A stretch of 64,000 nucleotides of DNA from Sphingorhabdus rigui (GTDB lineage: Bacteria > Pseudomonadota > Alphaproteobacteria > Sphingomonadales > Sphingomonadaceae), in assembly GCF_014196595.1 (NCBI RefSeq), contig NZ_JACIEA010000001.1, forward strand, positions 870,845 through 934,844. Reading direction: 5' to 3'. Both the position numbers and the translations under genes were made by a program. Positions 32,096-33,447 of the stretch are shown one piece after another; within the stretch, counting starts at the first letter, position 1; the number at the start of each line of letters is the position of its first letter. The notes under the pieces are model-generated. The model did not search any database. It had not been told where the DNA came from and saw only the letters and a list, made by a program, of their open reading frames with translations.

Positions 32096-32140
32096 TACGC
32101 TACGCCGCGTTGACCGTGTGTTGTCGCAAAATCGCTTGAA

Positions 32141-32173
32141 CCTTTTTGTTTCGACCAATACGAACAAAAAAGG
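32141..32173. repeat. AT-rich inverted repeat before the unknown gene at 32194
   Basis: CCTTTTTGTTTCG (32141-32153) and CGAACAAAAAAGG (32161-32173) pair almost completely around a 7-base loop. It could be an operator or a processing site. It lies 21 bases before the next start codon. Confidence 0.45.
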
Positions 32174-32193
32174 AACTTCGATTGGAAGATCGT

Positions 32194-32925
32194 ATGTCGG
32201 TTATTTCATTACTTTCGGCAGCTAGCTTCGCCGATTTGAGAGAAATGTGGCGATCAGTCGATTTCGACCGGCTTGGCATCACCTTTGATGACGGCAGTAA
32301 CCCGGCGAGCGTGTCGGGCAGTCTGCTGTTTAGCGGTGTTGCATTTAGCTATGCGTTACAGTCGTGCCCTCCGCCAGCGGCAACGCACCACATTTTTTGC
32401 AACGCTGATCTTTCGGATATTCAGTCCGCCGTCCATATCGATTTGGGCCCAGCAGTCGCATCTGGCCGCATTGTTCCGGCAATAGTGAAGGCTCTACTGG
32501 AGCTTGGCGACGTTCTCGGCCGCAACTTGGGTATCAAGGCCGTGTTCTGGTCTCCGGCGGCTGTTGTTTCCGGATATGATTATTACGCGGAGGCTGTGGC
32601 GCAATATGCCCAAGGTGCTGCCTTTCCGGCATTGCTGTGTGTTGGCTTTGACATGTCGACTATCGGTACTGTGCAAACCACAGGGTTGGCGTGGCTATGC
32701 GATCAGGAACTTACCTTCACGCATCCGCCGCTGCCGATGCATGAAGCTATGCGTTATGTGGTGCGCCTTGTGCACGACCTTGCCACGCAAGGGGCATATG
32801 ATCGCGCACTGGAGCTGCCCGGCTTGCACGCAGATGAGGTTGTTGTCGTGACGCCCAGCCCCGATCAGGGCAAAGTAAATGCATGCTTGGTTAACGGTAT
32901 TGAGGCCATAAAATCCGTCCAATAA
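32194..32925 (+). CDS. Protein of unknown function (possibly DUF4261-like)
   Basis: A 243-residue protein with no signal peptide or membrane helix, so probably cytosolic. The stretch AVFWSPAAVVSGYDYYAEAV followed by LLCVGFDMSTIGTVQTTGLA recalls DUF4261 proteins, but I hold that loosely. ATG 32194 follows GGAAGA. It lies 48 bases upstream of a predicted AHH nuclease on the same strand, so the two may be expressed together. No catalytic motif is visible. Confidence 0.7.
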   Translation: MSVISLLSAASFADLREMWRSVDFDRLGITFDDGSNPASVSGSLLFSGVAFSYALQSCPPPAATHHIFCNADLSDIQSAVHIDLGPAVASGRIVPAIVKALLELGDVLGRNLGIKAVFWSPAAVVSGYDYYAEAVAQYAQGAAFPALLCVGFDMSTIGTVQTTGLAWLCDQELTFTHPPLPMHEAMRYVVRLVHDLATQGAYDRALELPGLHADEVVVVTPSPDQGKVNACLVNGIEAIKSVQ

Positions 32926-32973
32926 TATATGAGTCGCGCCATTAGGCCCGCGACTATGGTCGGCGGAGGCAAG

Positions 32974-33447
32974 ATGCGCACTTTTCCCAGAATCGCACGC
33001 GCGGCGGCTCCGTTGCATCACCAATCGCATCATATCATTCCTGTCGGCGTCTTTGCCGGTCGGGCATTTGCCGCGCACTTTGATGCTCTGTCGTTCCACG
33101 GATTTGACGCCCGTCAGTTTGATCGCAATGGCGTGTTTTTGCCAGCGACGGAAGGGGCGGCCATACGCTCGGGCTTGCCACTGCATCGGGGGCCGCACCG
33201 CCGGTATAATGAACTTGTGGCCTACCGCGTCGATGCCATTTTTCGAGACTTCGACCGCGCCCGTTGCCAATCGCGCGCACGACTTGAGGCCGTTCAGCGT
33301 ATCGACTTGCTGACGTTGGCATTACGGGCCGTGTTGCGCCGAACGTCACCACGCATGTCACTAAACCAGCGTGACCCGTTCCACAGCAGCGCATGCTTCC
33401 ACGATCTCGATAGCGCGTGCGATGCAATTTGGTTGGCAACTAAATGA
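32974..33447 (+). CDS. AHH-family HNH-like nuclease domain protein
   Basis: A 157-residue protein. It shows the AHH signature: His19-His20 in QSHHIIPVGVF, Asn52 in RNGVFLPATEG, then LHRGPHRRYNE with His71, His75 and Tyr78. This family of metal-dependent nucleases belongs to the HNH/EndoVII fold and is best known as a toxin tip in polymorphic toxins, though here it is free-standing and has no secretion domain. ATG 32974 has GGAGG 4 bases before it; ATG 32929 would add 15 residues. Target and purpose are unknown. Confidence 0.8.
   Translation: MRTFPRIARAAAPLHHQSHHIIPVGVFAGRAFAAHFDALSFHGFDARQFDRNGVFLPATEGAAIRSGLPLHRGPHRRYNELVAYRVDAIFRDFDRARCQSRARLEAVQRIDLLTLALRAVLRRTSPRMSLNQRDPFHSSACFHDLDSACDAIWLATK

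What the first reader, a model, noticed from the sequence alone, without database searches (positions are those of the whole stretch)
32194..33447. Stand-alone AHH nuclease behind an unknown gene, a possible toxin or defence pair
The AHH protein has the full HH...N...LP...H.G.H..Y set but no delivery domain. AHH domains are known mainly as toxin tips. The upstream 243-residue unknown is 48 bases away on the same strand and has an inverted repeat before its start. It could be an immunity-like or antitoxin partner; or the nuclease could serve a cellular function. The pairing is inference.
Basis: partly seen in the sequence, partly recalled or inferred. Interest (0 to 1): 0.6.

Follow-up and report, generated by a model that had tools for sequence, protein, structure and literature searches.

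The report
AHH nuclease with DUF4261-like putative antitoxin
A small DNA-cutting enzyme of a family known from bacterial weapons sits in the ordinary chromosome of one family of bacteria, always accompanied by an upstream partner gene that it apparently cannot live without, which makes the two look like a built-in poison-and-antidote pair.

Summary
In detail: a stand-alone AHH (PF14412) nuclease lies 48 bases downstream of a 243-residue unknown. The unknown is a remote, full-length relative of DUF4261 (HHalign 97%, E 7.5e-11). The genes co-occur throughout the Sphingomonadaceae: 151 of 155 genomes with an AHH match also have the partner, and all 42 paired loci read have the partner upstream on the same strand. 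They sit in fixed chromosomal slots beside housekeeping genes. No relative turned up on plasmids or in viral contigs. Only 9 of the 155 have a type VI sheath gene; this genome has none. The dependency is one-sided. The partner survives without the nuclease in 29 genomes, and beside frameshifted nucleases in others. I found no intact nuclease in a genome lacking the partner; there, only headless or partial relics remain. Both genes are under purifying selection, evolve far faster than their neighbours, and change in step with each other. Best explanation: a chromosomal toxin-antitoxin-like pair with a nuclease toxin and a DUF4261-like antitoxin. Toxicity, neutralisation, binding and trigger are inferred, not shown. 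The selective retention of lone partners is unexplained.

The parts
32194..32925 (+). Putative antitoxin/immunity partner, 243 aa, remote full-length DUF4261 relative
   Evidence: ORF; HHalign to DUF4261 profile 97.1%, E 7.5e-11 over 214 columns; weak PF14080 hits in 4 of 20 homologues; dN/dS 0.17-0.20
32974..33447 (+). Stand-alone AHH (His-Me finger, HNH/ENDO VII superfamily) nuclease, 157 aa from the best start; alternative in-frame start 32929 (172 aa)
   Evidence: PF14412 E 7.9e-13; catalytic residues invariant in relatives; dN/dS 0.07-0.12
32141..32173 (.). Imperfect inverted repeat (arms 32141-32153 / 32161-32173) in a conserved upstream block
   Evidence: possible operator, function inferred only
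32136..32164 (+). Promoter-like TTGAAC - 17 nt - TACGAA, conserved in relatives
   Evidence: read from the alignment; not listed by the consensus scanner, so inference
33028..33207 (+). AHH motif region of the nuclease: from H34-H35 to H86-R-G-x-H90-x-x-Y93 (numbered from ATG 32929)
   Evidence: alignment columns

Best explanation
The two genes form a chromosomal, vertically inherited toxin-antitoxin-like pair of the Sphingomonadaceae. Shown by sequence: gene order partner then nuclease with tight or overlapping junctions, co-occurrence, one-sided dependency, correlated fast evolution and purifying selection. Inferred: the AHH protein is a metal-dependent DNase that damages the cell's own DNA if free; the DUF4261-like protein, encoded first, binds and silences it; some stress or invader frees it. 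The partner has a further, nuclease-independent use that keeps it alone in many genomes.
For: Of 399 genomes of the order, 155 have an AHH match and 180 a partner match, 151 both (compared by hand). All 42 paired loci read are same-strand with the partner upstream, many with overlapping or near-abutting ORFs. The four AHH matches without a partner are two C-terminal relics (G145, G162) and two related genomes (G241, G271) whose AHH reading frame has no ATG/GTG/TTG before the HH motif; there an N-terminal partner relic (57% over 35 aa, E 3e-8) shows that one deletion took the partner's body and the nuclease's start. In the genus, G009, G012 and G038 keep only C-terminal nuclease relics and no partner; in G009 and G038 the partner's first codons are joined to the nuclease's last ones. 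The reverse is common: 29 genomes with partner only, nuclease frameshifted or truncated beside an intact partner in G101, G169, G184, G403, G381, G313, and a clean in-gene deletion shared by a five-genome clade (clade support 0.98). Partner and nuclease distances correlate beyond shared ancestry (partial r 0.685, permutation p 0.0005; control pairs 0.35 and 0.41). AHH nucleases in other bacteria kill as DNases (PMC10902643).
Against: Toxicity and binding are untested; the co-fold of the pair was uninformative (mean pLDDT 46). A lone antitoxin should decay, yet lone partners keep dN/dS 0.16-0.34, so the partner does something besides neutralising its neighbour. Four genus members carry a cytochrome b561-YceI gene between the two, so close linkage is not required. 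A nuclease that merely needs its partner to work would also give one-sided dependency.
Confidence: 0.62

Rival explanations
1. Cellular nuclease with an obligatory helper: the DUF4261-like protein is a chaperone, targeting subunit or activator, and the nuclease performs a non-toxic task such as DNA processing. Loss of the helper makes the nuclease useless, so it decays.
For: Fixed housekeeping chromosomal slot, vertical inheritance, no mobile context; purifying selection on the nuclease; the partner is kept alone under selection.
Against: It predicts intermediates (partner broken, nuclease still intact or drifting); none was seen. In G009, G038 and G241/G271 the nuclease was disabled by the same deletion that removed the partner. 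The nuclease is lost often and the pair evolves far faster than its neighbours, unlike a core function.
Confidence: 0.22
2. Effector-immunity pair for competition between cells: the nuclease is exported by an unrecognised route and lone partners are orphan immunity genes.
For: AHH is classically a delivered toxin domain (PMC3482391, PMC10902643); orphan immunity genes elsewhere may protect against incoming effectors (abstract of PMC10539506), which would explain the selective retention of lone partners.
Against: No delivery domain, no T6SS sheath gene and no VirB4-type gene in this genome; only 9 of 155 AHH-carrying genomes have a T6SS sheath gene. Gene order is partner first, whereas effector-immunity pairs usually have the effector first (general knowledge).
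Confidence: 0.12
3. Chance neighbourhood: a decaying toxin remnant next to an unrelated gene.
For: The nuclease is frequently lost or frameshifted in relatives.
Against: Adjacency is conserved in several chromosomal contexts and many genera; dN/dS 0.07-0.12 and invariant catalytic residues in the nuclease.
Confidence: 0.04

Closest known systems
Tox-AHH nucleases of polymorphic toxins and T6SS effectors (PF14412; e.g. V2a of Agrobacterium tumefaciens 1D1609)
   Same: AHH-family core with HH, N, H, H, Y; a presumed partner gene next door
   Different: No PAAR/VgrG/Rhs/CDI delivery part; fixed chromosomal slot; S/R/K/C-HH instead of A/G-HH; partner upstream; the partner family is not among the AHH immunity families listed in PMC3482391 (Imm-PA2201, Imm-ank, Imm11, 20, 23, 24, 43)
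DUF4261 (PF14080) proteins
   Same: The partner aligns over 214 columns to DUF4261 proteins, C-terminal region included
   Different: Below the Pfam threshold (best member E 0.019). DUF4261 has no assigned function that I found; the one paper in the library that names it is a phenotype-prediction study. The nine short DUF4261 loci found across the phylum showed no obvious AHH neighbour on inspection.
Type II toxin-antitoxin modules
   Same: Antitoxin-first gene order, short or overlapping junction, no delivery domain, toxin not found without antitoxin
   Different: Unusually large antitoxin (243 aa) without a recognised DNA-binding domain; vertical inheritance in fixed loci rather than mobile; antitoxin kept under selection after toxin loss

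Membership tests
AHH nuclease family (PF14412) | Curated profile match | tested here: met
   48.8 bits against a cut-off of 22.3
AHH nuclease family (PF14412) | [AG]HH, N, H, H, Y motif | tested here: met
   HH, N, H, H, Y invariant; the residue before HH is S/R/K/C, not A/G
AHH nuclease family (PF14412) | Nuclease activity | not testable with these tools
   bench assay needed
DUF4261 (PF14080) | Curated profile match | tested here: not met
   No hit for the window protein; 4 of 20 homologues hit weakly, best E 0.019
DUF4261 (PF14080) | Homology over the full protein by profile comparison | tested here: met
   HHalign 97.1%, E 7.5e-11, 214 columns, one-to-one comparison
Type II toxin-antitoxin module | Two adjacent co-oriented genes conserved as a unit | tested here: met
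   42 of 42 paired loci, four of them with one gene inserted
Type II toxin-antitoxin module | Toxin does not persist without antitoxin | tested here: met
   No intact nuclease found in a genome lacking the partner
Type II toxin-antitoxin module | Toxicity and neutralisation by complex formation | not testable with these tools
   co-fold uninformative
Polymorphic toxin / T6SS effector-immunity | Delivery domain or secretion system | tested here: not met
   No other domain; no VipB or VirB4 family match in the genome; other secretion systems not searched
Catalogued anti-phage defence system | Match to a catalogued defence protein | tested here: not met
   PADLOC: no match for either protein

The most novel reading that the evidence does not exclude
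A previously undescribed, family-wide chromosomal nuclease toxin-antitoxin system in which a DUF4261-like protein is the antitoxin, giving a first function to DUF4261, and in which the antitoxin outlives its toxin under selection because it also acts as a general guard or regulator.
Probability: 0.35. Interest if true: 0.68.

Novelty: new variant of a known kind. Interest (0 to 1): 0.52.

Why it matters
[quoted passage not shown] A solitary AHH nuclease held in a fixed chromosomal slot across a bacterial family, with a partner from a family of unknown function, would show such a weapon domain settled into vertical inheritance. It proposes a testable function for DUF4261. The repeated loss of the nuclease with selective retention of the partner gives many natural deletion strains in which to ask what a lone antitoxin is for.

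Tried and rejected
AlphaFold2 of the partner on five sequences: mean pLDDT 57, and Foldseek against PDB gave nothing below E 0.1, so no fold assigned. Co-fold by reading through the stop between the genes: pLDDT 46, no interface information. Profile search of PDB sequences: no meaningful match. T6SS or T4SS delivery: not supported. Mobile-element origin: no plasmid or viral-contig relative. Toxin swap at the nuclease slot in partner-only genomes: in most partner-only loci read, the partner directly abuts the next conserved gene, so the nuclease is simply absent. Defence-island reading: neighbours are ccm genes, kup and leuA here, and recJ, a flavodoxin-like gene and a nitronate monooxygenase-like gene elsewhere (these names are read from the sequences, not from a family search), and PADLOC is empty. 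Fusion of the two genes: the long ORFs in L171 to L174 look like upstream start extensions or overlaps, not fusions.

Full report
Observation. The window (part of a 2.47 Mb Sphingomonadaceae genome, judged by its named relatives) holds, between kup and leuA, a 243-aa ORF (32194-32925) and an AHH nuclease ORF ending at 33447. The best nuclease start is 32974: GGAGG lies about six bases upstream and the methionine is conserved in 18 of 19 aligned relatives. PF14412 matches at E 7.9e-13 and the catalytic residues are invariant in relatives. NCBIfam, PADLOC and PHROGs give nothing for either protein.

What the partner is. Single-sequence Pfam search is blank, but DUF4261 is the top family when 20 homologues are scanned (4 members, best E 0.019). 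A profile of five DUF4261 proteins taken from other genomes of the phylum aligns with the partner profile over 214 columns (97.1%, E 7.5e-11). That E-value is for a single comparison. The partner is therefore most likely a remote, full-length DUF4261 relative. I found no described function for that family.

Distribution. In 100 relatives, 25 have a nuclease match; 22 of these loci carry the partner and the other three (G009, G012, G038) are C-terminal relics. In 399 genomes of the order, 155 have a nuclease match and 180 a partner match, all in one family; comparing the two lists by hand, 151 have both, 4 nuclease only, 29 partner only. In a sample of 289 genomes of the class, the partner was found only in members of the same family (4 genomes). 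No plasmid or viral-contig relative was found.

Loci. In the window's genus the pair sits mostly as ccmF-ccmG-ccmH-ccmI-kup-[partner-nuclease]-leuA (names read from the sequences). In other genera it lies among recJ, a flavodoxin-like gene and a nitronate monooxygenase-like gene. All 42 paired loci read have the partner upstream on the same strand, usually within about 60 bases or overlapping; four have a cytochrome b561-YceI gene in between. One genome, G441, has partner and nuclease on different contigs.

One-sided dependency. Partner kept, nuclease gone: five genus members share one in-gene nuclease deletion whose ends carry a short repeat, and they form a clade on the leuA tree (support 0.98). 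In 29 genomes of the order sample only the partner is found; in those read, the partner usually abuts the next gene. The nuclease is split by frameshift in G169, G184 and G403, C-terminally frameshifted in G101 (and probably G208), internally deleted in G381 and truncated in G313, all beside an intact partner. Partner gone: in G241/G271 a deletion runs from inside the partner into the nuclease's start, leaving a partner N-terminal relic (57% identity over 35 aa) and a nuclease frame with no start codon before HH; G145 and G162 keep C-terminal pieces only; G009 and G038 join the partner's first residues to the nuclease's last ones. I found no intact nuclease in a genome without the partner. These counts are not corrected for phylogeny, and the reading of each relic was by eye.

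Selection. Among close relatives dN/dS is 0.07-0.12 for the nuclease, 0.17-0.20 for the paired partner, 0.17-0.34 for orphan partners in the genus, and about 0.01-0.05 for leuA and kup (one divergent kup aside). Orphan partners elsewhere give 0.24 and 0.16. Lone partners are thus relaxed at most, not neutral. Both genes diverge much faster than their neighbours: partner 50% and nuclease 62% identical where leuA is 93%. Partner and nuclease distances remain correlated after removing ccmF distances (partial r 0.685, permutation p 0.0005; controls 0.35 and 0.41).

Delivery. The genome has no T6SS sheath (VipB) or VirB4 family match. Across the order sample 27 genomes have VipB; 9 of the 155 nuclease-carrying genomes are among them (counted by hand). 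Other secretion routes were not searched.

Mechanism. Shown by sequence: the unit, its order, its one-sided dependency, its selection and its coupled evolution. Inferred: the free AHH nuclease harms its own cell and the DUF4261-like protein silences it. A helper-dependence model fits one-sided dependency too, but predicts genomes with a broken partner and an intact or decaying nuclease, which were not seen. The retention of lone partners under selection is explained by neither simple model and points to a second role.

Known versus new. [quoted passage not shown] Known AHH effectors are T6SS-delivered DNases (PMC10902643). My searches of the paper library found no description of this pair. Hence: new variant of a known kind.

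Noticed in passing
L066, L069, L070, L071: In one sub-lineage of the genus a cytochrome b561-YceI fusion gene sits between partner and nuclease, and kup is missing from its usual place upstream of the pair.
   Followed up: partly
L057-L061: A nuclease deletion shared by five genomes, with a short repeat (CATTTGG-like) at both ends, leaves a tiny in-frame scar after the partner gene.
   Followed up: yes
L061:5071-5860: In G024 the orphan partner itself is split over two reading frames, i.e. decaying after loss of the nuclease.
   Followed up: no
L162:4893-5447: G441 carries an AHH nuclease with complete motif behind an OmpA-family gene, away from its partner gene, which lies on another contig.
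   Followed up: partly
L204:451-2490: A 679-aa protein of G106 (same family, another genus) contains a DUF4261 domain over the cut-off, flanked by what look like further related units.
   Followed up: no
L203:3-1767: A DUF4261 gene in G891 appears to be interrupted by a transposase gene.
   Followed up: no
window 32130-32180: A block upstream of the partner gene, with an imperfect inverted repeat and promoter-like hexamers, is conserved where the flanking intergenic DNA is not; possible autoregulation site.
   Followed up: partly
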